Of a stretch of 64,000 bases of DNA, positions 1 through 64,000 are shown piece after piece. Origin of the DNA: Cliona cf. orientalis. Lineage: Eukaryota; Porifera; Demospongiae; Clionaida; Clionaidae. Location of the stretch: contig OZ005689.1 in NCBI GenBank assembly GCA_963930775.1, forward strand, positions 22,442,058 to 22,506,057, in the 5' to 3' direction. Made by a program: the position numbers and the translations under genes. The notes beneath the pieces were generated by a model. The model saw only the letters and a program-made list of their open reading frames with translations. It was not told where the DNA came from and did no database searches. The first letter of the stretch is position 1. Every line of letters begins with the position of its first letter.

Positions 1-2372
1 ACACACATTTACACACTCAGTCCTCTGTGTAGCCTCCTCGTCACTTGCTGCACTGTAATTCGCATTAGGGGCTGGGTTGCGTGACAATGCGTCTGCATTT
101 GAGTTCTGCCGGCCTGAGCGGTGCCTTATAGCGAGATCAAGCTCCTGGATTGCGAGTGCCCACTGTGCCAGCTTCCCTGAGGGGCGTGCCCTCTGCAGCA
201 GAGATAAACAGGCAGAATGATCGGTATATACTGTAGTATGGTGCCCAAGTATGTATGGACGGAAATGACGGGCAGCCCACACCAGCCCAAGTGTCTCCAA
301 CTCCGAGATCCCGTAGTTCTTTTCACTAGTATCCAATGACCGCGAAGCATATGCCACTGGATGCAGTTGGCCATCATCCTGCAATTGAGATAGCACCGCG
401 CCCAGCCCCACCCCACTTGCATCAGTTTCAAGTACAAATTCAACCCCAGGACCGAACTTAGGGTATGCTAAGATGGGTGCGGTAATGAGGGCTTCCTTCA
501 GCCGCTGGAATGCTATTGCACAAGCTTCACTCCACTTAAACTCCACATTCTTCCGGGTCAACGCATGCAGTGGGGCTGCAATACGGGCGAAGTCTGGGAC
601 GAACCTCCTATAATAAGAGGCCAATCCAATAAACTGGCGCACACTGGTGACATCATGTGGGACAGGAAAATGTCGTACCTTCTCGGTCTTACTGGGATCA
701 GGTCGAACACCACGGGCCGAGATTACATGACCCAAATACGGAACTTCATCACGCAGGATTAAACACTTTTTCGGCTTCAAACGGAGTCCGGCTGACCGGA
801 GCCTGTTGAAGACTTCACGGAGATGTCCAATGTGTTACTCTAACGTCCTGGACACCACCAAGATGTCATCCAAGTACACAAAGCAGTGGCGCCACTCCAG
901 GCCCGCCAAGATAAGTTGCATAACCCTCTGAAAGGTTGCGGGGGCATTACATAGCCCAAAGGGCATACGGGTGAACTCAAAAAGCCCCTGATAGGTGGCA
1001 AAAGCTGATTTGGCACGAGCATCCTTATCGAGCTCCACCTGCCAGTAACCGGATGCAAGGTCCAGTGATGTAAAGAACTTGGCTCCTCCTAATGTGTCAA
1101 AGATGTCATCGATTCGTGGTAAGGGGTACACGTCTTTCTTGGTGATGGCGTTAGGCGTCTGTAATCGATACAAAATCGCAAGCTTCCATCCTTTTTTGGT
1201 ACAAGGACCACAGGGCTGCCCCACAGACTGGTAGACGGTCGTATTATGCCTCTCCCTTGCATCTCATCCACGAGCTGCTCTATCTTGTCACGGTATACCA
1301 TTGGGGTCCGGTGGGGAGGTTGCCGCAGAGGGGAATGGTCACCAGTGTCAATGACATGACGCACCAGGTCCGTACACCCCAACTCCGAGTCATCCAAGGC
1401 AAACACATCTGCTGACTCGCGCAAAAGCTCTTTAAGCTGCTTCATCTCGTCATTGTCAAGCTCCTCTGGGAGCTCCAAGGCTTCTAGCTGACGCTGATAG
1501 CGCTCCGGCGTATTGGGGAGAGCCTTCACGTGGGCACACAATCCACCACCCAGGCTATCAGGCAGGCTCGGTCCCTCCCCAGGCTGTGCTAAATCTTGGC
1601 AAAGAGGCTTGCATGGCTGTACCATCCCCAAAGGGGTCCCCTTGTCTAATTTAACCAAGACTCCTTGGAAATTTTGCAGTGGTATCAACGCTATCCCCTC
1701 AGAAACCGTCACTAGCGACTCATGAGCGCATAGCCCCAAGGGCTCTAAGGCTTCGTGTCTAGGCTCAAACAAAAATTGCTCGTTTGGGGAATACCCATCG
1801 CCAACACAGGCTCTCACTATACATCCTTTCATGCTAGGGATGGTAGCAGCTTGCACTAGGTGGACATGCGCTTGCGTCCCACCACTGCTTTTAAGCGGCT
1901 CGCCGCTAGCACGGGACACGGACACACCAAGAGCAAAAATGGCATTGGTCCCCAGCAAACACGCCTGCTCACTGTCAGGCTGTATGAACACGGGTACTGT
2001 AATTTTTCTACCATCTGCAGCCAATGTGAGCTCCACCTGTGCTGTTATGTCCAGCTCTCGCTCGTTGGGGCCTCCCTTTCCATAGAGCGGCATGGAAGGT
2101 AGTTTCAATTTGGGCAGGCTTTTCCCTTGACTTTTTAACCAGCTATTAATCTCATGCAACAACGAACGGGAGATAATTGTGGCTTGGGAGCCAGTGTCTA
2201 CCATGGCTGCTACTGTCACCCCCTCTATGCTAATATCAAACAGGAGGTTGGGCCCAATAGCCCCACTAACTACTTTTACAGTGCTATGAGGCTCCGTAAG
2301 CATCTGCTGCTCCTTATCCAGCAGGCGCTGGGCCAACTCCTCCTTGAGCTGTTGGTCTGATAGGTCTGCCAT
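1..2372 (-). pseudogene. Pol: protease, reverse transcriptase, RNase H (3' end off window)
   Basis: The frame opens at 2372, about 30 bp after the gag stop and in another frame. Protease is marked by MVDTGSQATI near residue 58. Reverse transcriptase follows, with the PKKDGSLRFCIDYR and MPFGLCNAPATF boxes and the YLDD active site near 865-876. Thumb/connection and RNase H (ETDASGVGLG, then HRSGRQNSNADALSR) continue in the sequence down to about position 70. A frame change lies where the 2372 and 1224 frames overlap (1089-1224), and an in-frame TAA follows the YLDD block near 838. The product is therefore broken. Integrase is expected beyond the left edge. Confidence 0.88.
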
Positions 2373-2405
2373 GGCAACAAAAACCTTGGAACGTACATTG
2401 CTCCC

Positions 2406-4640: not shown

Positions 4641-5584
4641 ACTATTATGTGTATCTTCGGTATGTGTATGGTATGTGTATGTGCATGTGTATGTGTATGC
4701 ATTGTGTACTGTATGTGCATGTGTATTATTACCTTGGATATACAGAACCAATAGTTGTTGAGCCATGTTTGTACTGTTTCAGAGATAGAAATGAGCTTCT
4801 GTTTGTTCTCCATTGGAACTGAAACGGGAGGAGCCCAGACACAACTACAGAGCAAATTCAGTAGCTCATCTCCTTCATCTGATGTAAGTCCGTGTTTGTG
4901 GTCCTTCATCCATCTGCCCCTACTTCATTCTCTGTGAAAGTCACAAATGTAGACTGTGAAAGTAGAAAATACTGACTCTAGTGCCCCAATTTCAGCTTCT
5001 GAGTCGTCGTACATGAAAAATGATGGTTTCCATGCTGGATTCCATTCCTTGACAATGCCCAAAGCTTCCTTAATGTCTTCACTTGTTTCTGACTGAACAA
5101 TAAACTTGGCTGCAACGATATACCCAACATTTGTCCGCACTGTTACAAAAAATAAGGGTACATCATGGAGAGTGGTCTTATAAGTGGCATCTATCGGTGT
5201 CATTGTGTTGCCGTATTTGACCAGCATTTCTGCTTGCCACTTTGTCTGATGTACCCACAGTAGGTTTCCCTGGAGCTCTGGAAGTTCCATGTCATCTTTC
5301 TCGCTTTTATCTGTTATAGCATAAGGCCTAAAGTAAAGTGAAGAGTTCTGATCAGCTTTCCATTCTTCAATTTTCAACTTCAGGTTGTGTTGGTCTAATT
5401 TTGATAATTGAATTTGGCTTTGTAGATGTGATTTTGAAGATCACGAGGTGTGGGATAGTAAGCCCTATCATCTGGATCCAGAGGGTTATCAGCACATAAC
5501 ACTGTGTTGACATAATGCTTGAGAGCCCTCTTGATTCCTTGGGGATCAATCATGCCTTCTGCGACCAATTCTGATATCTTTTGA

Positions 5585-31369: not shown

Positions 31370-32399
31370 GTCCCAGGAGCATTTGAGAGCATAGTTGAAA
31401 CAGCCTTGTGCTGCACTTCATCCAACCTTTCATAGTTATGTAAGGCTTTTATCGAACGATGCCCTGTTTGCTCTTGAATAAATTTTCAGGAGCACTGCGC
31501 CTGAACATCTCGGTAGCTGCTGTTGCATGTAAAGTATCGTCTCTTGTGACCACTTATTCCAGCTTCAGAGCACATACTTTTCATTTTCGCATGTAGACTG
31601 TGTTTTGCGATAGGAACCTAACTGTATCATGGCTTACTCAAACTAGAGAGTTTCTCCAGTGGCCATACATAAAAGAGATCTTTTTTTCTCTTTGGCTTCT
31701 TTGGATAGCTTACCTGTATTTATCCAAAATAAATACAGGACATCATTGATCTACTTCTGGGCATGGATGCAGAGGAACAACCTTATTCTTGACACGCAAC
31801 AGCTTAAATGTACCATTTCTGTTCTTCGACGTGTTTTCGTAGTAGACATACTAGTTGAAGCGTTTCAACTGTGATAGGCATAATCCTCTGTGCTCTTGAC
31901 CTCCACGGAGACAAAACATCTTACCCACTACAAAAAAGGTAGCATTCTGTAGACCAGTTGGAGTCTTGGTGTCCATTACTCCTTCACTCCATAATTTGTC
32001 CTCTTTGCTGCATGATATTGTTCCATGAAGGTCTCTAAACCTACTATTGTTCTTGTCAAAAAAATTTGGGCAAGTGGGATTTTTGCTTCTCATGTGCCTC
32101 AGTATGCTACATAAGAGTTGGTGCAAAGTAGCCGGAGGATACAGCTCTCCATTTGATTTCCTGGTTTCTATGACAAACCTAGAAAGGTATTTGCTCAAGG
32201 TTAGAGTATCTGTACATTGAAAGATATCACTTGGTATCGGGTCATTTGGGTGAGAGATATTCCTGTTGGTGATCCAGAGCTGAAGGTTCTTGAGAGCCCA
32301 ATTCGTTATTTTGGCTGTATTTGCTGGTACTACTCCTTCAGCGAGTTTGGCTAGTTCCTCGTCGGTTGCAAATGCAAAGCATTCAGGTGTGTTGCAGCC
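31370..32399 (-). pseudogene. Crypton-type / DUF3504 tyrosine recombinase-like relic
   Basis: Reading from 32399: ECFAFATDEELAKLAEGVVP, NTAKITNWALKNLQLWITNR, LSKYLSRFVIETRKSNGELY, PPATLHQLLCSILRHMRSKN, then DKLWSEGVMDTKTPTGLQNA and FCLRGGQEHRGLCLSQLKRF. Other frames give KNRNGTFKLLRV and, near 31440, FIQEQTGHRSIKALHNYER. This matches the KCTD1/QRICH1/ZMYM-type DUF3504 family derived from Crypton tyrosine recombinases. The LRGGQEHR (usually LRSGHEHR) and TGHRS...Y motifs are the catalytic Arg, His and Tyr regions. Stops near 31757 and elsewhere and several frame changes make it inactive. Confidence 0.78.
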
Positions 32400-40076: not shown

Positions 40077-41961
40077 TCGTGCACACAAACTTGTGTGCAT
40101 ACACACTCACACACACACACACACGAACATACACACTTGTACACACACATACACACTCGCACACACAAACTTGTGCATACATACATACTCGCGCACACAC
40201 ACACATACACACTCACACACACGAACATACACACTCGCACACACACACTTGTGCACGTGCACTCACACATGGTAGACATAATATTATTATGTGTACTTGC
40301 ATTTTTATATCATAGGAACATCACCAAGTTCGTGGACTGACCAACTGCAGTCTGTCACCATCAAGGACTTTACATCCACAGTAGGTCCCACGACAGACAT
40401 CCCTGAGTCGCCGATCGATGTCTTCGAGCTCTTCTTCTCTGAAGATCTGCAGGAAGAGATTGTCAGAGAAAGTAACCGATACGCTAAGCAAGTTATGGGC
40501 GACCAGCAGTATCAGTCGTGGACACCCATCACTGTGGAGGAGCTCAAAGCTTTCTTTGGCTTCTCCATCTTGATGGGTGTGAACCATCTGCCATCGCTCG
40601 ATGACTACTGGAGCCATGACCAACGACTACGGTATGCTCCGATCGCCGATAGAATTCCTCGATGGCGTTTCAGGGAAATCTCCCGGTACCTACACTTTGT
40701 GGACAACGACCATCTTCCTCCACGTGGTGATCCAGCGCATGATCGGCTTGGCAAGGTTCGACCCTTGATCACTCATCTCAGCAACAAGTTTGCAACACTC
40801 TATGAACCATCTAAGGAGGTTGCTGTAGATGAGGCCATGATCAAGTTTCAAGGTCGTTCCAGCCTGAAACAGTACATGCCGAAGAAGCCAACGAAGCGTG
40901 GAATCAAAGTGTGGGTACTGGGAGATAGTACCAACGGCTACTTTGGTCGGTTCGATGTTTATACTGGCAAAGGAGAAGGGCAAGTAGAAGGACTTGGAGC
41001 ACACGTGGTGAAGAAGTTGACCGAAGACCTGAAGCACAAAAATCACCACGTGTTCTTCGACAACTACTTCACCTCCTACCAGCTGCTGGAAGATCTCGAG
41101 AAGGATGGAATTTATGGATGCGGGACAGCGAGGAAGGATAGGAAGGAGTTTCCAGGGGCACTCAAGAATTCTGATCTGAAACAATGGTAGGTGTGTGAAA
41201 AAAGGGTGGGTACAAAGGTCAATAAACATATTCATATACATCCCCCTATCTTTGTTGCCACTATACATTGCACAGTTTACTAATGACCATGATACTTACA
41301 AATTTTACTCTATAGGGGCGAATCGAAGACACTCCGGAGAGGCAAGGTTACTGCGAGTGTGTGGATGGACAACAAGCCTGTCACCGTCATGTCCACAAAC
41401 ACCCAGCCATCAGCAACTGGTTCTGTACTCCGCAGACAGAAAGATGGAACACGGATTGCCATTCCTTGTCCTGAAGCTGTGATCGCTTACAATGCGAACA
41501 TGGGTGGTGTAGATCGAGGTGATCAGTTGCGTGGCTATTACAACTGCCGCACAAAGAGCCGAAAATTCTACAAGTACATCTATCACTTCCTTTTCGATGT
41601 CAGCATCACGAATGCTTTTATCTTGTGGAAGCATTTCGGCTCTGCAACTGGGATGACCCTCAAAGAGTTCCGACTACGACTCGCAGAACAGCTGATCGGG
41701 GATTACTGTAGTCGTCGGCGAGCTGGTCGTGGTGGTGGTGCTATTCGCCCTCTCCCCCTGATGCACTTCCCTCTAAAAGTCCCAGATGACACCACTGGAG
41801 CTAACAAGAGAGGACGTTGTTCACGCTGCCTCCAAGTACGACACAAGCGTACCGACTCTTCCTGGTTCTGCCGCGAGTGTAATGTGTGGCTGTGTCATTC
41901 TGGGGTGCCTGAAACAGACTGCTTCCTCCTGTGGCACAAAAGCAGAAGACAGGAAGAGTAA
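38745..41961 (+). CDS. piggyBac transposase, three exons, apparently intact
   Basis: Exons 38745-39021, 40316-41186 and 41316-41961 join in frame across good GT-AG introns. The acidic N-terminus (Asp/Glu/Ser-rich) precedes the DDE_Tnp_1_7 domain. Catalytic Asp codons: 40828 ([12 protein letters not shown]), 41059 ([13 protein letters not shown]) and 41512 ([14 protein letters not shown]). The C-terminus has the expected cysteine-rich domain, [20 protein letters not shown] then [15 protein letters not shown]. No stop or frameshift found, total near 598 residues, normal for the family. It is the only transposase in this window with an unbroken frame, so it may be functional or recent. The nested MITE and CA tract lie in intron 2 and should be spliced out. 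Confidence 0.93.
39147..39813 (-). mobile_element. GTGACCGG-family MITE, copy D, inside the piggyBac intron
   Basis: Ends GTGACCGGATCTGAGAAAAC and complement of GTTTTCTCAGATCCGGTCAC, duplications ATAT on both sides (39143-39146, 39814-39817). Both ends carry the same GATCTGAGAAAACCCGCCATAT-type variant. The family first exon is on the minus strand (about 39453-39536). It was inserted after piggyBac acquired this intron. Confidence 0.9.
39825..40270. repeat. 445-bp CA-rich mosaic microsatellite
   Basis: Almost pure alternation of ACACAC with interspersed CTCGTG/CTCGCG/CTTGTG units, in piggyBac intron 2 and just downstream of MITE copy D. It produces long spurious Thr/His and Cys/Val reading frames. 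Alternating purine-pyrimidine sequence of this length is prone to Z-DNA and length change. Confidence 0.95.
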
Positions 41962-45326: not shown

Positions 45327-46940
45327 CTACTTCTTTTGCAGCGGACAGCCGGCTTTGGTGGTGTGACCTGCAGCCCATCTGGCAGGATTCTTGTGTCCAG
45401 TACCATCACACCCCTCCGTAGAGCATTTGCTCTGCTTTCTCTTTCGAGACGGGCTCGAAACACCAGCTGACGACTGAAGATAAAGTAGGAGCACAGGAGG
45501 AATGAATAGCAGTACTCTGGGATGGCAAGTAGTCTGGCCTGCAATCAGGAGGTATGAAGCGATCATACATAGTGACCATATTTGCCATCTTTTCTGTAGT
45601 GAGAGTCTTTGTCTGTGTGTCCTTGTAGGTCTCTGTCGGTACTCTAGGTAGTGACGAATCGCGTATGCGCAGGGGAGAGTCTTTCCAGCTCCCACTAAAA
45701 CAGTTTTCACGGACCTTCATAACAACTAACCCATCATGAGCCTTCACCACAAGGAAGTCATGGTACCTCCGTACACCTGGAAGGTCAGAGTACTTCTCGC
45801 CAAGTGTATTCCGCCGCGTAAGTATTTGCTCTCCCGTCTCTATGTGGCATGTTGCACTCCTGTCGCAGATAGACTTCAGATCACCTATAGTGAACACATC
45901 CTCTGTCTTATAGGCACATCCAATGGTTGAGAACAGCCGATTTGGAGCAAACTTTGTGTGATCTGCGATCATAAAGCTGATGTGAATGTGGTCAAGCTCT
46001 CCACTACTCACCATCTCCATAGCCCAAGAAAAAAGATACTTATTCTTATTGGTGCTAGTGGCGTTGTCCAGAAAGATGGCAAGACAGTTTATCCAGGGGT
46101 GCTGCTGTGAGACTGTGTGCCAAAAGTGAGTGAGGAAGGATACAGTGTGGTCGGTATTCTTAGGACCAATACGCTCATCGAAGAGGTACACTGTTGACTC
46201 GTCACTGGAGTGGTCGACTATTCCTAAAATGTCGTGGGAGACCTTCTGGAGGTAGTAGGTCGATCCAGGCTGCTCACTCCTTCCCCATGATGGTACTAAC
46301 TTGGACTGCTGATAGTCGGCACTGATGGTCAGGGTGAAACAGTGTTGTGCACTCCGCAGCTCCTCTCTCTCACTCTGAGATGGTCTGGTGACATCGGTAA
46401 GTCACTTGATGACAGACCACTGTGACTTGCATCTCTCTGTTGTAGCCTTATAATACTCTCTCGCTTTGGTAGCTGTATCGTTGTGTTGTGCCAATTCTTC
46501 CTCCAGGTTCCTTTTGGCTGACTCCAAGGCGCGCAGCTCAGCCCCTGAAGTACTCCCTGACTGCTGCTGGCGGTTGCGGATGGCCTGGTGGCGAGAGAGT
46601 TGCTCCTTCAGGTACTTGCAAGTATCACAGTAGTCTGTCATCGAAGGATGAAGCGCTACCTTAGGTCGATGCTTTTTCAACCACTCGACTGCAGCAGTGG
46701 AGCCACAGGTTGGTCGCTCGTTCTCTCTCTGCACTCTGTTGAACTCCGCTACCACTGAAGACTTCTCAGTGCAGTTAAGGACTGTCTCATCTGTGTTCAT
46801 CAATGAAATATGCACATTTTCAGGAGCTAATACTAGTGTCTTGTGTGACAATTGAGTACTGATCATGATGTTGAAATTGAAGCCCAACTCTAGTACTTTC
46901 ATAATATGAAACAATAAACCACAAATATCTAATCAATTAA

Positions 46941-55192: not shown

Positions 55193-57624
55193 ATCAACAG
55201 GAAAGATACATACAAACAACTGCCATCCTCACTACTTACATGTACATGTACCAGATTCCAACGCCATGTTGTTGCCTGGACGAGAGTACCCGGGTACAAG
55301 AGCTCCGACGTCAAGCTCCTCCCTTCCAGCACCACCATGCACGCCATCTGGGAGCTGAATCTCCACGCAGCAGCAACCAGTGTGATGAGGGCAGTGGCTT
55401 ACTCCACCTTCACCCAGCTCTGGTGTCAGCTTCTCCCTCATGTAGTGGTGATGAAGCCTATGAGCGACTTGTGCTGGGTCTGTCAGCAGAACAGCACTGC
55501 TATCATGCGTGCTGCTAACCGTCCTGATGAGGAGAAGTCGATCGTAAGTGAATGTGTCTATATACATGGTGTGCATGTAAAAGAAATATGTACACAAGGT
55601 GTGCATTAATTAGTTACACCATAATACATGCACATGTACATGTATGCAGACTCTCAGACAAGCCGAGAATCACCTGGTTGATGTCACCACGGAGAGGTCG
55701 GTGTGGTGTACAGGGAAGCTCTGGAGAAGGCCAAGTCATCCGTCCTTGCACACTTTTCTGCAGAAGGTACCTTCTCTCCACCACCACCTGCAGCAAACAG
55801 ACCGTTCAACAACACTCCCATCCATGCCCACTACAGTTTCGACATGGCCCAGCAGGTGTTCTACCCCAACGACCCTCTCCAGCCCGGCCCAATGTACTTC
55901 CTGACTCCCCGGAAGTGTGCCATCTTCGGTGTGTGTTGTGAGTCCCTCCCCCGACAGGTGAACTACTTGATCGACGAGGCTGTCGACATGGGGAAGGGCT
56001 CCAATGCCATCGTAAGCATGCTCCACCATTTCTTTGTGCACCATGGGCTGGGCGAGGAGACAGTACACCTGCACGCCGACAACTGTGGTGGGCAGAACAA
56101 GAACGCCATCATGGTCCAGTACCTGTTGTGGAGAGTCATGACCAAGCTGCACTCAGAGATCACACTATCCTTCATGATCCCGGGGCACACAAAGTTTAGT
56201 CCAGATTGGTGCTTTGGACTTCTGAAGAAGAAGTACCGACGGAAGAAGGTGGGAGGCCTCAGTGATCTCTGTAGTGTGGTCAATGACTCGGCAGGTGTTA
56301 ACATTGCTCAGCCAACAGGACTGGAGGATGGGAGTGTTGTCGCCACCTACAACTGGCAGGAGTACTTCTCCCAGTTCTGCACTAAGGTGAAAGGCATCAA
56401 GAAGCTTCACCATCTGCGCTTCTCATCTTTTTCGCCTGGCTTCATCTTCGTGAAGGAGAGGGCTGGAGATACGGAAGTGAAGAGGAGTATCCTCAAGGAT
56501 GCAAACTGGAAGCCCCAGGTAGACCAGCTACCCCCTGTCCTCCCACCCTCAGCACTCCCTCCTCTACAGCGGCAGTGGTATCTGTACGAGAAGATCAGGG
56601 AATTTTGCCCTGATCACTTGAAGGATACCACGTGCCCACGGCCTGGCGGACCGTCTGTAGACCCTTCTCCCTCCCGTTCACCAACGCCACCTACTCCACC
56701 TCCTACCTGTATCACCACCACCACCACCACCACTACTTTTACTACTACCGCTGATAGTGATGAGCCACCGGCTTCTAGGCGGCCAAGACTTTGTGGACAC
56801 TGTTGGCAACCAGGGCATAATGCTCGCACTTGCCCACAAAAATAATTTTTGTACTATGCACATACAGTAGTTTACTTTTACACTCACACATGCACCTACT
56901 CACCATGTTTGTTGCTGTCTTTTTGTGTTTCTACCTCAATAAAGACTTATCGAGGCCCCTCAACCAAGGGGTACCCTAGCAATCCTGAAGGAGTAAAGTC
57001 ATCATAGGCTACGGCTTTAAATATAGCGTGCGCTAGCGCATAACGTTTTAAACCACTTCTATAGTACACTCAATAAACTGTCAGCGTGGTTCAGCTTCTC
57101 AAAATACAACAGAACTGAATTTCAACAATAAGCTACAGGTACCAGTAAACTGTTTGGTGTAAAACATCGCCTGTCCTGCCAAGGACCTATGAAGAACCAC
57201 ACCCAGGTAAGCTACACAATAGATCCTATGAAGAACCACACCCAGGTAAGCTACACAAAAGATCTAGATAGCGTACCTTTTGGCGTTCTTTTCACTCCTC
57301 TCCACGGCCAGACCCGGCGTATCCCTCATTCATCTCTTTCCCGGCAAATCCATTAGTCAGCTAACCACGCGGTATGATACGGAGCGTATACGGAAACATT
57401 GAACGTTGAGCTATGTACGTACAAAACGCTCCGTTTCTCGAAAAATTGTGAACTGAGGCACGGGTGACCCGTGTACAATTTTTTGGCCATAACTCGGCTT
57501 AGGAAACTTTTTAAAGCCTGGCTCTTGGACCGTTGAACTCTACACTAAATTCTGCGTCGATCCATACCCAAAACGCGAATTTCATAAAAAATCGCGAGTG
57601 GTCGGTTTTTCCATAGCGGGTCAC
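53915..57624 (+). mobile_element. Complete DUF7869-carrying DNA transposon (3710 bp)
   Basis: Ends GTGACCTGCTATGGAAAAAC and complement of GTTTTTCCATAGCGGGTCAC, with ATAT duplications at 53911-53914 and 57625-57628. The terminal repeats extend at least 26 bp (through CGACCACTCGCG). It encloses one multi-exon gene (54241-56845). The right subterminal part has a 39-bp tandem repeat (57186-57263) and the conserved CCGTGTACAATTTTTTGGCC region. The 4-bp duplication and long ends would fit Sola- or Chapaev-type elements, but this is inference. Confidence 0.9.
54241..56845 (+). pseudogene. DUF7869-type putative transposase no. 1
   Basis: Exons 54241-54358, 54450-55117, 55255-55543 and 55650-56845 with good splice sites. 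Exon 1 starts MVDKVARALNLLGADRDLLD; exon 2 is acidic, then has CKCDLGPNRSPC. Exon 3: KLLPSSTTMHAIWELN, MKPMSDLCWVCQQNSTAIM. Exon 4: HYSFDMAQQVFYPNDPLQPG, FLTPRKCAIFGVC, VNYLIDEAVDMGKGSN, then VHLHADNCGGQNKN and SFMIPGHTKFSPDWCFGLLK, which I take as the nuclease-like core, and a C-terminal CCHC knuckle CGHCWQPGHNARTC. One-base frame changes near 55065, 55285 and 55705 break the frame. They may be true decay or assembly errors. A GA-repeat fills intron 2 and an ACC-repeat lies near 56715. Confidence 0.85.
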
Positions 57625-58051
57625 ATATGAGGCGCGCAGCACTGTGCATTTGTGGTCTGCTATAGTGCATCCTATTGCTAGGTTACCAATCAGCTGTGTG
57701 AGCGTGGTTTTGTGGGTAGTTGCTTAGTAACCTTGCTGCATTGATAAGTGACCAATCAGATTCATGTTGCAGAGCAGGAAGTATGCAGCAATGATGTCAC
57801 ACTTCCTTCAAGTGTATAACATGGGTGTTTCATTTCAGCTTGTACGCGGATATTTAGTTGTACACGAGAAAATTTTTCCTGGGCATAGCAACGCGTGATC
57901 AATGCGCATAGCAACTAATCCCAAAACTATTCACGTGGTAAGTGTGAATATCATTAAACGCACATGGCAGTTTTGCTGACTGAGCGAAACAGCAACCATC
58001 GTGGAAGACTGGAGCAAGTCCTGTCTTCATACGGCGATCACACGCCAAGTT

Positions 58052-58123
58052 ATGGCCGACGGCGCGAGGCTGTTTTTTAATGATGGGTGTCTTCTAAGAG
58101 CTGAAGTTTCTTCTGTGAGTAAA
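58052..58123 (+). other. Possible first exon of an unidentified plus-strand gene
   Basis: ATG reads MADGARLFFNDGCLLRAEVS then SVSK up to AAAG|GTGAGG, a fair donor. The region upstream (57625-58051) is non-repetitive. No further exons recognised. If real, the RAG1-like gene lies in its first intron on the opposite strand. Confidence 0.3.
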
Positions 58124-59728
58124 GGTGAGGCAGTAAATACTTAGGAAATAAGACTGAACTATTGTTTAGAGCTCTACTTGATGTCCCACTTATTTTTTAT
58201 GCTTACTTTTTTGTTGTCTGAAATTCTCCATAATTTGTGATTATCGGAGGATAAATAAAGCTGTGTACGGCGTAGTGTAGGGGATAAAGTTATTGCCTAG
58301 CTAGACTTAGTCTTCTTCCTTCTCTTTACAGCAGGAACTAGGCTTTGTAGCTCAGGATCAGTGCGGAGGTGGTGTTCCTGGACTACTCTAAACAGCCTGT
58401 CAACCTTGTTAGGCATGTTTAAGTATGACCGCTCAATGTTATTGAAGGAGGCGTGGATGGACTCCGCTCCTTGTTCTCCCATGAACCCCAGGCCAACTTT
58501 CCACTTCTCCAGCCAGTTGGGAAGATGTGCCTCTAGGAAGTGCATCTTAGGGAGAACTGGCTCCAGGAAAATGCTGTCGATAGTATGCCATGAAACCCTG
58601 GATATTGGCTCCTACCACAATAGAAATTAAAAGTCAACCTCACCACAGATTTCACAAGGTAACTTACGAAGAGTGGCTAGTGATTGACTGTCTACTCTGG
58701 AACTGTCATAGATGTAGTGACAAGATGCAAACAGCTCAAATGCAGTCTGGAACCTATCTGCTATCTCCTCTGCCCTTGCAACAGAAAAGGACATCTCAGC
58801 TGAGCAACTTGTACAGGTGACGTGCAAAGAGTTTTGATGTTGGCACTCTGTCAAGGTATTAATTTTGATATTAATTTTAGGACTGTCAAATGTTGCCTAG
58901 TACCTGGAGTGTTCTGTGAACGTAGTTGCCCACAAACGTGCCTCCATAGTAGGCTTGTCTTTGCACATTGAACGAAGACAAAGCTTCGTCGAGAGCACGG
59001 ACAAATGGCCCCTCTTCTGGAGTGAACCCCTTTCTAACTTTTTCTCTCTCTTCCTTAACATCACATTCCTATATGCATTATTTATTTAATTTAATATAAA
59101 CTGGTTTTGAAATTGGTAACATACAAGTTGCGCTAATTTCCGTCTTAGCTTGGCTGCTGCGTCTCGACAGTACTCGACTTGCTGCTGAGGGTACCCTTTC
59201 AGGGCCAGGTATGTACTCAGTTGCTCTGCTGCCTCTGCCTCCTCTGTTTCGTTTCTAATCTCCGCCTCCAGCTCTGCTACCTTCTGCAGTGCCGCTGAGT
59301 ACAATCGAAATGAATGGAGTGTCAGGTTGACTGGAGTGTTGTGCCAATGCCAAGTCCAGCTTTTTCCAGCATGCTTCCAACAGTTCAAAGAGACGGAAGA
59401 AGATGCCAAGTGAGATGCGCAAACCTGGCATGGAAACCTAATACATAAAAATTTAATGTGAGATCAGTTGCCATGAATATCTAGCTGTAGTGTACCTGAT
59501 CAAGTGGTAAGTCAAAGAAAGGCTCATATTGCATTGTGGAACTCTTTAACTTTTTTGTGGTCTCCTCCGCTAGCCATGAAGTCCTTATGGTCACTATGAA
59601 TGGTGTCAAGGGTTCGCAGGTTGCTGTCGGCTAACAAGGCTTGTGTTAGCTTGCTTTTCAGCTGATCCTGGTGAATGTGACACCAAAGGCAACAATGGCG
59701 ACCTGTCAATATTTAGTCATCACAATTT

Positions 59729-60394
59729 GTGACCGGATTTGGGAAAACCCTCCGTATGGGATCCGCGCGCGATTCGCGCAATGCGCGTTTTTAGTAGCTC
59801 AGGTCGAAATTTGTCAAAATCCAGATTTTGTCATATACATGTCGAATAACCCTTCTTCCAATTGTTGCCGTCTTCTACGGAGGCTAGTCGTGCTATACGA
59901 AGGCGAAATAAGCCTTCATTTTGACCCACCTAGTCGGCACAGCCACCGTACACGGAGCCCGTTGCTATGGGCGGTAATTAGAATTCTCTACCTAGATACA
60001 GCTAGATTCATCGATCTACTGTACATTCGCTTACCTTTTTAGCTTCTTGGGCATCTAAGAACAATCGCCTGTCCTTGTCAACAACGAAATTCAACACTTG
60101 CTCGATCTTTACGTTGATTTCGAACGGCTCCGCCCAGGTCCATTTAATTGATTCTGGGTCACGCGTAGTATGCGGAAACGCCATATGCGTGCATAGCAAC
60201 GCCTTTAGACTGTAATTTCTCGATTATTGGGGGTGTGGCGCGATCACAAACAAAGCGCTGTATCTCCACAACGAAGCGCGCGATCGGCCTAAGACTTGAA
60301 CGCGGGTTAGCTCTATGGTAGAGCTTATCAACCATGCATCAAACTCAATTTTCTGAAAAAATCCCATACGGAGGGTTTTCCCAAATCCGTTCAC
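59729..60394 (-). mobile_element. GTGACCGG-family MITE, copy E, in a RAG1-like intron
   Basis: Ends GTGACCGGATTTGGGAAAAC and complement of TTTTCCCAAATCCGTTCAC, duplications ATTT (59725-59728, 60395-60398). It lies inside the intron between the GDYEFL exon (ends 60433, donor GTAGAC) and the CLWC exon (starts 59702), so it need not disrupt the protein. Confidence 0.9.
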
Positions 60395-60847
60395 ATTTAT
60401 CGGGTACACACACACAGTGCTACGGAGTCTACCGGTTGCTCCAGTAATGCCGAAGAGCCGACACAGGAACTCATAGTCACCAGTGATAAAAATCCTGATG
60501 GATGGTCTTTCCACTACCGGTATTGTTATAATAAATATTATGTTGTCTAGTTACATGTAGTTCTAACCTCCACTGTGTTTTCTGTAGGTCTGTTATCTGG
60601 TGTCTGTAGTGATTCAGGGCAACATGGAGATTCGTAACTGAGTCACTGGCCGCAAAAACACAGGTATTGTGAACGCTGTTGGGGTGAGGGACGTTGCCAA
60701 TCTGGAACTTCAACTTGACAGTGCCTCCTCCCTTGTCTCCACCCAGCTTCACCCAGACTTCACTCTCAGGAATAGTACCATCATGCCAAGTCAATTGCCC
60801 GAGGCTGATTGTAGTCCAAGTTGTAAGAGCAAAGAAAGAAGGTAAGG

Positions 60848-60870
60848 TGTGTGTGTGTGTGTGTGTGTGT
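60848..60870. repeat. (GT)n microsatellite in a RAG1-like intron
   Basis: About eleven GT units between exons 60804 and 60887. Confidence 0.95.
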
Positions 60871-62699
60871 ATAAATGATTATTTACTTTTGACGTTTATC
60901 CAAGAGTTGAAAGAGCTTTTCTTTCAAGTTTGGGATGAACACCAGTGGTGCTCCTCTGATTTCCTCTCCGCCTGACTTGAATGAGAAGGTAAGTGGTGCT
61001 ACTTCTGACCTCAGATTGTCTGAAGTGACTGCTTTTGACCGCTTCCGAAGTGAGCGCTCACTCGAAATTTGGACATTCCAGGTGGTAAGCCATCTATTAT
61101 CATACACATGTGTATTGTTGGTGATTTTATGATTGTGTATTATTGTGTACCTCCTAATTATTCACAGCGTATTCCATGGGATGGCAAGATCAGCTTTCAT
61201 GGCCAAGCCCTGGTCTGGTGGAATGTCAATGGTGATCCCGGAGATCTTGCCTTTCCTCTGCAGAAAGCGCCCTCACTTCAGCTTGCAGCTGGGCCTTCGT
61301 GTCATTCTTACTCAAGGAACTGCGGATATCCATGAGTTCACTACTTCTCCCACAGTGTTTTGCTGCAAGCCTCGGAGGAAGACACTCGAGCCGTTGGTAC
61401 GTGAACAAGAGTGAGAGGCTATACACGAGAGGTGTGTACTAGTTCAGTAGTTACTGTGGTGAACTGGACTATTATTATTATGCTATTGTTATGATTTCTG
61501 ATGCAACTACACTACTATTATCGCTATTGCTATTGTATCACTCTATCACTCATTTTGTACGCGTCACATGAATTTCACGTGACGTCGTGTGCCATGCCAT
61601 GCAGTTCTTTTGAGTTGAAATTACAGTGAGCAGTGAGAGTTATGAATCTGTTTTGATCGGGGCTTTCGTGACTGACTAGAGCGCGGAGAGAAAGAGAGTG
61701 AAGACTAGACTGAATACTTTACAGTTACAGTTATTGATTTTTTACTTACTTGTCCGCCAGTTGGAATGTGGACGGTACTGGTTGTGCCTACCTTAGCTGC
61801 TACCTGCTTCTCTGTGGCTGTTGGTTCAGTGGCCAGAGGCTGGGAGAGGATGTCCTGAAGTGTGAGGTCTGCTGTGTCTGTATACTGCACTCAAAGTCGT
61901 AGTGTGCCTTAAAGTCGCTGTATCTGACTGACCGCTTACAGGAAGGACAAGTGACCATAGCTCGTCCAAGCACACCAAGGAGAACGTTGGTTGGTTTCAT
62001 CACACGTACTGGATGAGAACAGTGACAATATGGACAGCTGTCACTCTGGCATGTTTCTGTCCATCTAAGGTGTTTGCACCGAAGGTATGGACTCTTAGAA
62101 TTAAATAATTATGTGAATTATGTTTTACCTGTACACACATTCTGTACATAGTACTGCACCACATGATACTTGGACTGGTCTGTCGAGGAGGGTCATGCAT
62201 ACTGGACATTCGAGGTCGGACTGCTGTACACCAAGGGATGACGGAACGAAGTACACTAGTGTACTCCACTCTACTTGACCTGGTAAGTAGCTCTCTTGCT
62301 TGTTTGTCTGTAGCTGTTCCAGTAGTGCGTGCACTGACTGCTGTTGGTCTGCCTCGATTTTTCTTAGGCCGTCCCCCCTTCTTGGACACTACCACCTAGT
62401 CACACACCTGACAGTCCAACTGTTTGTGCCCTGACCATGCAAAGACTGTTACTGAATGCAGGTAGATCTTCTCGTTATTTGCTGCAGCAACTGCCTTCAC
62501 TACAACTGCCTTACAGCGTTCACAAAAGTATGGTGGATGGATATACCTTCCGTATCACTGGAGTGGTCAATACTGAACACTTTCAACAAGTCATCATTGT
62601 GATCCTCACACCTGTACACAACTCTATGCTGCAGATAGCAGCCACAGACTCTACAGAGCTTTTCAAGGCATTCACTATGGAATGTCTGATCCATCTATA

Positions 62700-64000
62700 G
62701 AAATTTTGTGATTCATAATATTTTGTTGCTAATTTTAGTTGCTTTAAAAAATAAGTGTAAGCAATTCTGGGGTATGTTGTTACTGACTCTTGTGGTGTAG
62801 TCTGGTGTGGTGAATACTCTCTAGAAAACATCTCAAGGTGCAGGATGTGGCCAACTTCTTAGAGTACTCACCCGTGGCTATGTAAACTGCATGCAAACAG
62901 CTGCATGCGCAGTAGCGTATAAGTGTGTGCAGGTGCGTGTGCAATCACTCCTGGTTGTCAGGGAGACCTACTCTGGCCCACTGGAATGTTTATATACGCT
63001 ACAGTTCCTCAAGTGGCTGGAAATACCCATAGTACCACTACTACAGGTAATGAAGATGCATTGCTATGCGTGCTGTTTCACGTAAGTGCATACCGTAATG
63101 TTCTAATTATCCAACTAAATGTCCACGCGAAACACCCGTGATAAGCTAACAAGCCAGCCACGTGCGTTATTCAGTAGTGCTAGTGCTGGTGGCCCTGTAG
63201 ATCTACTGACCGCCACGTTTGGTCTCGTATTTGCTACTAAAGCTGTTTGTGACACCCAAGGCTTGGCTATAAAACCAGAGGAAAATGTTTCTAGGACCTT
63301 TCAACCGTGAGATCTGGACTGCGTTGGGAATGAAGGAGATTCTATGCTTCAAGCAGCCGAGGAGCAACTGTCTCAGCCAGGTCTCATGCGACACCCCCTT
63401 CTACGCGTGCGTGACTCGTTTTTAGTGGTAGGAGAGACTACATGGCGCTCAAAAGAGCCACCAGTACTAGCACTTGTGCCGCGTGTCAGTGGGCTCAGCT
63501 CAGTCCCCATTTGAATTTTGCCAGAAAGCAAGGTTTTTGCTAATTTAAACCTTGATAGAGCTACAACTTACCATCAATCTGATCATGCAGACAATAATTA
63601 AAACTCAATTTCTGCCTATTTCTTCCTTTTGATGCATTTTGTTTAATACAATTCAAATTCATGACAGGTCTTCTAACGAAATTTAACTACTCCATTCTGA
63701 GTATCTACACCATTTTAAAAACCTCATTAAATTCAAAAGATCAAAGCATATTATGCATACCGTAGTCTAACTAGCTATGTTACAACATGTTAAGTATCTA
63801 TTAGCATTATACCTTCAAGGTCTTGTTTACTCCAGTTGCGAATAGGTCGTCATTCTTGCTGCCACTCAAAATTACTGTTTGCTCCTTTTTTGTTTCAGCA
63901 CCAAAGAAGCACGCCAACTCAGACATCATGTGGTACATGTACATGTATGTATGTATGTATCACATGATCACTATACCTGATCATGAGATGGACCTACTAC
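62700..64000. other. No supported gene upstream of the RAG1-like gene
   Basis: Holds the presumed promoter and 5' untranslated region (a TTTCTATAG acceptor directly precedes the ATG at 62694). Open frames at 62891-63310 have no recognisable motif. A (TATG)n tract lies at 63942-63960. No inverted repeat matching the 57.6-58.3 kb flank was found. Confidence 0.4.

What the first reader, a model, noticed from the sequence alone, without database searches (positions are those of the whole stretch)
58297..62694. RAG1-like gene with both the RAG1 N-terminal region and a RAG1-spaced DDE core
The minus-strand gene reads, in order, LCRVCG...DLLKVFSID...YFCERC...W-x2-H-x4-C-x2-C (the pattern of RAG1's N-terminal zinc-binding region), a RING-like and CCHC/C2H2 module, and a core with D, D, CxxC, HxxxxH and E. 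The distances D-18-C-2-C and H-4-H-20-E match mouse RAG1 (D708, C727, C730; H937, H942, E962: 18, 2, 4 and 19 residues between). Transib transposons have the core but not the N-terminal region. Known N-RAG-TP elements (Aplysia and others) have the N-terminal region with a transposase whose relation to the RAG1 core is debated. A copy with both in a probable sponge bears on when the two parts were joined. The RING-like His is Ala, and no RAG2-like kelch gene is adjacent.
Basis: partly seen in the sequence, partly recalled or inferred. Interest (0 to 1): 0.95.

Follow-up and report, generated by a model that had tools for sequence, protein, structure and literature searches.

The report
Decayed transposon related to RAG1
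This is a worn-out copy of a jumping gene (a Chapaev-type transposon) whose enzyme shares its layout with RAG1, the protein that cuts antibody genes in vertebrates; that combination was described in 2015, but the two ends of these elements have an uneven spacing, like RAG1's own target sites, that I did not find reported for this family.

The parts
57820..63140 (-). whole element (5321 bp incl. nested insertion), Chapaev-type DNA transposon, decayed copy
   Evidence: terminal repeats plus 4-bp TSD; relatives with like boundaries elsewhere
63114..63140 (-). 5' end: head CACGGGTGTTTC + inner box GTGGACATTTAGT, short spacing
57820..57858 (-). 3' end: head CATGGGTGTTTC (CAT where relatives have CAC) + spacer + inner box GCGGATATTTAGT, 12 bp deeper than at the 5' end
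63141..63144 (.). target-site duplication TTAT (5' side, minus-strand reading)
57816..57819 (.). target-site duplication TTAT (3' side, minus-strand reading)
62548..62694 (-). N-terminal zinc region, first part (LCRVCG ... DLLKVFSID)
62399..62539 (-). N-terminal zinc region, second part (IHPPYFCERC ... W-x2-H-x4-C-x2-C), other frame; TAG stop follows at 62398-62396
62125..62240 (-). RING-like module, first half (CPVC ... CTEC; His position is Ala)
61894..62078 (-). RING second half and C2H2-like finger (CPYCH ... CPSC...H)
61160..61390 (-). region placed like RAG1 NBD/DDBD (ELMDIRSS ... GLAMKADLAIPWN), frame-broken
   Evidence: by position against RAG1 from residue 391 on; no sequence significance of its own
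60560..60795 (-). exon with first catalytic Asp (KLGGDKGGG)
   Evidence: (DUF1280)
60440..60515 (-). exon with second catalytic Asp (ITGDYEFLCRLFGITGATG)
59729..60394 (.). 666-bp MITE-like insertion with inverted ends and AAAT duplication, between the D708-like and C727-like exons
   Evidence: sequence, by eye; copies of the same repeat in L022, L023, L025
59525..59705 (-). exon with C-x2-C (GRHCCLWC)
59255..59437 (-). exon with the 'LH' motif of Chapaev, here LR (MPGLRISLG)
58901..59068 (-). exon GPFVRALDEAL ... FVGNYVHRTLQ
58297..58611 (-). last exon: H-x4-H and catalytic Glu (HFLEAH ... GEQGAES)

Best explanation
A decayed copy of an autonomous Chapaev (CMC/Transib-superfamily) cut-and-paste DNA transposon. 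Relatives in the same assembly encode one transposase of about 970-985 aa in 10-11 exons. Shown: terminal repeats, 4-bp duplications, one coding unit, conserved DDE + C2C + LH + H4H residues, RAG1-like N-terminal and RING/zinc-finger modules, a RAG1-type predicted core fold, and uneven bipartite ends. Inferred: a transposase dimer pairs one short-spaced and one long-spaced end, cuts at the outer CAC (by the nick-hairpin route of RAG and HzTransib), and inserts with a 4-bp stagger. The core reads the CAC head and the region in the position of RAG1's NBD reads the inner box, so that ends with different spacing (about one helical turn, sometimes two) are paired. The zinc/RING part probably has a regulatory or assembly role; its missing RING His makes classical E3 ligase activity doubtful.
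Against: The core alone is not significant against vertebrate RAG1 by profile comparison (core E 0.08, C-terminal part 0.06, NBD-like part 0.09), so its kinship rests on predicted folds and motif spacing. The folds are of homologous proteins (39% and 32% identical to the genomic copy L016), not of the window's own. Gene models rest on GT-AG scoring and open frames, not on RNA. No Repbase Chapaev was available for a tree. The window's 3' end begins CAT, not CAC, and its LH motif reads LR.
Confidence: 0.93

Rival explanations
1. A RAGL/ProtoRAG-type transposon or a domesticated RAG1 homologue, i.e. on RAG1's own branch.
For: Domain order is collinear with RAG1 residues 99-739; Z to RAG1 is slightly above Z to Transib.
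Against: 4-bp, not 5-bp, duplications; no second gene in the four copies checked; RAG1 core family PF12940 not reported at E up to 1; repeated, recently copied and decayed copies rather than one conserved gene.
Confidence: 0.03
2. A chimera: a RAG1-like N-terminal region on an unrelated DDE transposase (the N-RAG-TP reading in which the core is not kin to RAG1).
For: Core not significant against RAG1 by sequence profile; its Pfam match is DUF1280, not RAG1.
Confidence: 0.04
3. The uneven ends are only inherited subterminal repeats without a pairing rule; the fixed spacing reflects common descent.
For: All elements are related; spacers are more alike across families than shuffles (0.37 against 0.28, sd of the mean about 0.02), so some common descent shows; shifts of 19 (L012) and 20 (L038) occur, and the L038-type short end is at 11 places in the assembly, so 11-12 bp is not obligatory.
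Against: Spacer sequence has diverged far (0.37) while heads (0.90) and boxes (0.61-0.64) are kept, and the two boxes of one family match better than boxes of different families (0.88 against 0.63, permutation p 1e-4); same direction in 16 of 16.
Confidence: 0.45

Closest known systems
Chapaev transposons with Chapa domain and RING (Kapitonov and Jurka 2007, not seen; Kapitonov and Koonin 2015, PMC4411706, passages and abstract seen)
   Same: Chapa/RAG1-like N-terminal region, RING-type module, DDE core with C2C/LH/H4H, CAC termini, 4-bp TSD
   Different: groups with Ephydatia proteins by tree; RING His absent in 22 of 22 loci covered; bipartite uneven ends, which I did not find described for Chapaev
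RAG1 / V(D)J recombinase and RSS
   Same: collinear domains, core fold, two-part signal with short and long spacing
   Different: 4-bp TSD, no partner gene in the elements checked, core about 14% identical in the fold alignment, box sequence unlike the RSS nonamer
RAGL transposons, e.g. AanRAGL (TIR elements of 13 and 10 bp with 4/13-bp spacers, PMC9435367, passages) and ProtoRAG (27/31, PMC8289069, passages)
   Same: two conserved end elements with unequal spacers
   Different: 5-bp TSD and a RAG2L gene there; spacing difference 9 and 4 bp there, 11-12 (or 19-20) here
Transib (HzTransib; some with 12/23-like ends, PMC8355894, passages)
   Different: Transib lacks the N-terminal/RING region; 5-bp TSD
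N-RAG-TP (Aplysia)
   Same: RAG1-like N-terminal region in a transposon (PMC8355894, passages)
   Different: not comparable here: no sequence held

Membership tests
Chapaev | 3-4 bp target-site duplication | tested here: met
   13 of 16 elements perfect 4-bp, 3 of 16 with three of four bases, none 5-bp
Chapaev | termini 5'-CAC ... GTG-3' | tested here: met
   both ends in 15 of 16 elements; the window's 3' end is CAT
Chapaev | DDE with C(2)C, LH, H(4)H | tested here: met
   over loci covered: first D 19 of 22, C 18 of 21 and 18 of 21, H 20 of 21 and 19 of 21, E 18 of 20, LH 19 of 21; second D 13 of 21 (the residue lies near an exon border, which spoils some alignments); window LH is LR
Chapaev | Chapa (RAG1 N-terminal-like) domain | tested here: met
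   Pfam RAG1_imp_bd 8.6e-13 window, 8.1e-8 L016, 1.4e-4 L010 (22.0 bits, under the cut-off of 23.3); hhalign 6e-16
Chapaev | RING finger (two subgroups) | tested here: inconclusive
Chapaev | tree position among Repbase Chapaev transposases | not testable with these tools
   Repbase not held
RAGL / ProtoRAG | 5-bp TSD | tested here: not met
   0 of 16
RAGL / ProtoRAG | RAG2L gene in the element | tested here: not met
   no second gene in four copies; genome-wide RAG2 family search gave nothing but rang in none of 14 control genomes, so it decides nothing
RAGL / ProtoRAG | RAG1-type core fold | tested here: met
Transib | no N-terminal zinc/RING region, 5-bp TSD | tested here: not met
12/23-type signal pair | head and inner box with short spacing at one end and about one turn more at the other | tested here: met
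   14 of 16 shift 11-12; 2 of 16 shift 19-20; 22 genome matches of one bipartite pattern: lengths 27 (12), 28 (4), 39 (6) only
12/23-type signal pair | recombination needs unequal ends | not testable with these tools
   needs an assay
N-RAG-TP | sequence kinship with the Aplysia element | not testable with these tools
   no sequence held

The most novel reading that the evidence does not exclude
Chapaev transposases with a full RAG1-like layout use two-part ends that differ by about one helical turn, i.e. a 12/23-like pairing rule without RAG2. If so, bipartite, unequal signals and the domain order zinc region-RING-NBD-core are older than the split between Chapaev and the RAG/Transib lineage, and V(D)J recombination inherited rather than invented its spacing rule.
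Probability: 0.3. Interest if true: 0.8.

Novelty: new member of a known kind. Interest (0 to 1): 0.5.

Why it matters
The origin of the 12/23 rule is open: a 2021 paper says that the only known 12/23-like transposition outside RAG is in some Transibs (PMC8355894, passages seen), and a 2022 paper treats unequal ends as an ancestral trait of RAG and Transib (PMC9435367, passages seen). Chapaev transposases are only distantly related to these (PMC4411706, passages seen). Unequal bipartite ends there would push the trait back further. Open, recently copied elements exist in this assembly, so the question can be tested at the bench and by comparing other genomes.

Tried and rejected
Pfam RAG1 core PF12940 and RAG2 PF03089 in the own genome: nothing, but none of the 14 control genomes rang either, so no conclusion. 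Other loci: alignment A1 in genome contigs (30 pattern matches, 0 confirmed) and viral contigs (72, 0 confirmed) gave no relatives. The weaker matches (22-33% identity, long open frames) were dropped as another transposase family; I looked at one of them (L029, 659-aa ORF) and fetched a second (L030) without reading it. Ends taken from blastn borders were wrong or cut short for families C (L014, L018, L027) and D (L011, L012, L019); for C only a 5' end was found. Loci inspected for ends: 29 (L009-L028, L031-L038, window); both ends in 16. L019 has two candidate ends but a changed head and no matching duplication and is left out of the counts (by eye its shift is 13). A strict 12-bp rule was dropped after L012 (19) and L038 (20). 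A first count of 12 was superseded. Profile kinship of the core alone was sought and not found. Naming the host was not achieved. 'Not reported for Chapaev' rests on searches of an open-licence library; four of the lists were capped (36: 25 of 107 papers; 66: 15 of 389; 94: 15 of 144; 115: 12 of 126); Repbase Reports and most subscription papers are not in it, and Kapitonov and Jurka 2005 was not held. PDB matches of long helices were ignored. Structure jobs and matches are of P0001 and P0009, not of the window.

Full report
What is there. Joined for searching only, the N-terminal pieces match Pfam RAG1_imp_bd (8.6e-13) and weakly a RING family (1.5e-4, under its cut-off); the core pieces match DUF1280 (7.2e-13). 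The copy is broken: the N-terminal motifs lie in different frames, an in-frame TAG stands at 62398-62396, further frame changes follow, by eye roughly 250 bp without homology lie near 61640-61385, and a 666-bp repeat with inverted ends and an AAAT duplication sits between the second-Asp exon and the C-x2-C exon, where L016 and L010 have an intron (copies of that repeat in L022, L023 and L025).

It is a transposon. The window lies in a 216.8-Mb assembly of 149 contigs; at E up to 0.001 the last exon has 24 matches there, the N-terminal piece 21 and the core exon 59, the weaker of which belong to other transposases; several matches can lie in one copy. blastn among 20 fetched loci and the window shows pairs and trios 92-98% identical over 4.3-4.6 kb that stop abruptly. 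At clean stops lie terminal repeats CACGGGTGTTTC or variants. The window's copy runs from 63140 to 57820 and is flanked by TTAT on both sides. Both ends could be found in 16 of 29 loci inspected. Of these 16, 13 have a perfect 4-bp duplication, 3 have three of four bases matching, none has a 5-bp one.

Open copies. Splicing L016 and L010 at GT-AG sites chosen by a simple score gives open proteins of 968 and 985 aa; 15 of 19 introns are 50-60 bp. There is no RNA evidence. Coding changes between copies show an excess of silent ones: dN/dS 0.18 (L010/L013), 0.10 (L016/L015), 0.21 (L016/L025); L013 and L025 each carry one internal stop, L015 a 1-base gap and L025 twelve gaps. The N-terminal zinc region is included (0.15 and 0.13 in two pairs; in the third there were three replacement and no silent changes there). 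So the whole protein, not only the core, has been kept while these elements moved, though numbers in the N-terminal region are small. The four copies checked have no second gene. Key residues over the loci covered: first Asp 19 of 22, zinc Cys 57 and 60 in 22 of 22 and 21 of 21, Glu 18 of 20; the RING His position is never His in 22.

What it is. Chapaev hallmarks are a 3-4 bp duplication, CAC..GTG ends and C(2)C, LH, H(4)H motifs (PMC4079192, passages). Kapitonov and Koonin (PMC4411706, passages and abstract) describe Chapaevs with a Chapa domain equal to part of the RAG1 N-terminus, two subgroups also with RING, cores distantly related to Transib, and infer that all were joined in an ancient common ancestor. 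The element meets these features. A tree of 27 proteins (window core pieces, L016, L010, 21 of the 39 relatives, 3 RAG1s) groups the window copy, L016 and L010 with Ephydatia (100/99), apart from the scpid/metagenome and echinoderm groups; the three copies do not form one clade among themselves, and Hydra is a long branch of unsure place. This is in line with long residence in sponges; the host itself was not identified.

The ends. At the 5' end the head CACGGGTGTTTC is followed within a few bases by a box such as GCGGACATTTAGT; at the 3' end the same box lies deeper. An automatic search for the best 13-base match between the two ends gives a shift of 11 (5 elements), 12 (9), 19 (1) and 20 (1), always in the same direction, 16 of 16. 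Match scores are 9-13 of 13, against a mean of 8.2 and a maximum of 11 for shuffled ends, so the single 9 (L028) is weak and the 11s (L012, L026, L031) are borderline taken alone. Across 8 end families the heads are 0.90 identical, the boxes 0.61-0.64, the 3' spacers 0.37 (shuffled 0.28); boxes of one family agree better than boxes of different families (0.88 against 0.63, permutation p 1e-4) (families and strings chosen by hand, one element each). Over the whole assembly the pattern head-N(1-30)-TTTAGT has 22 matches, none in the backwards control, of total length 27 (12), 28 (4) or 39 (6) and no other; some of these are ends of the 16 elements. Ends whose box reads CTTAGT, such as the 3' end of the 20-bp case L038, are outside that pattern, and the matching search for them did not complete.

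How it may work. If TTTAGT with the three bases before it is taken as the nine-base element, the spacers behind a 7-bp heptamer are about 11-12 and 23 in the 14 elements; where that count starts is my choice, the difference is not. RAG reads its nonamer with the NBD and pairs 12 with 23 (PMC8289069, passages). AanRAGL has 4/13 and ProtoRAG 27/31 (PMC9435367, PMC8289069, passages). Unequal ends also occur in P element and piggyBac (recalled), so inequality alone does not prove kinship of the rule. The shifts of 19-20 show that 11-12 is not obligatory. I give a functional pairing rule in these elements about an even chance, and its descent from a common ancestor with RAG less (0.3).

Verdict. 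Real, important in kind, but of a known kind; the added observation on the ends is what deserves follow-up.

Noticed in passing
window 1089-2405, 4925-5440, 31851-32399, 40282-41190, 45406-46401, 55682-56845: Six of ten long ORFs scanned match mobile-element-type families: retroelement-type aspartyl protease (near its cut-off), MULE, DUF3504/QRICH1, DDE_Tnp_1_7 and two DUF7869 genes.
   Followed up: partly
window 59729-60394; L022, L023, L025: A MITE-like repeat (inverted ends with GGATTTGGGAAAACCCTCCGTATGGGAT, apparent 4-bp duplication AAAT) is repeated in several of the fetched loci.
   Followed up: partly
L038 69-1471: A 1403-bp element with the same kind of ends and TSD ACGT; its short-end sequence occurs at 11 places (one with a base change) in the assembly. 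Its two boxes differ in spacing by 20 bp. I did not check it for coding sequence.
   Followed up: partly
3' ends of L022, L028, L031; 5' ends of 10 of 16 elements: Some families share GCCCAYGCATAATTTTTTCC inside the 3' box (L038 as far as printed), and 10 of 16 5' ends share TAATTAGA about 28 bases in, so subterminal signals reach further than the box (by eye).
   Followed up: no
L029 951-2930: A single-exon transposase ORF (659 aa) matched weakly by the Chapaev core, with a GGDWKF...C-x2-C stretch: another transposase family.
   Followed up: no
all loci covered, RING module: The RING His ligand is replaced in 22 of 22 loci covered while the neighbouring Cys stays; Hydra and Oculina proteins (P0032, P0037) keep a His there.
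   Followed up: partly
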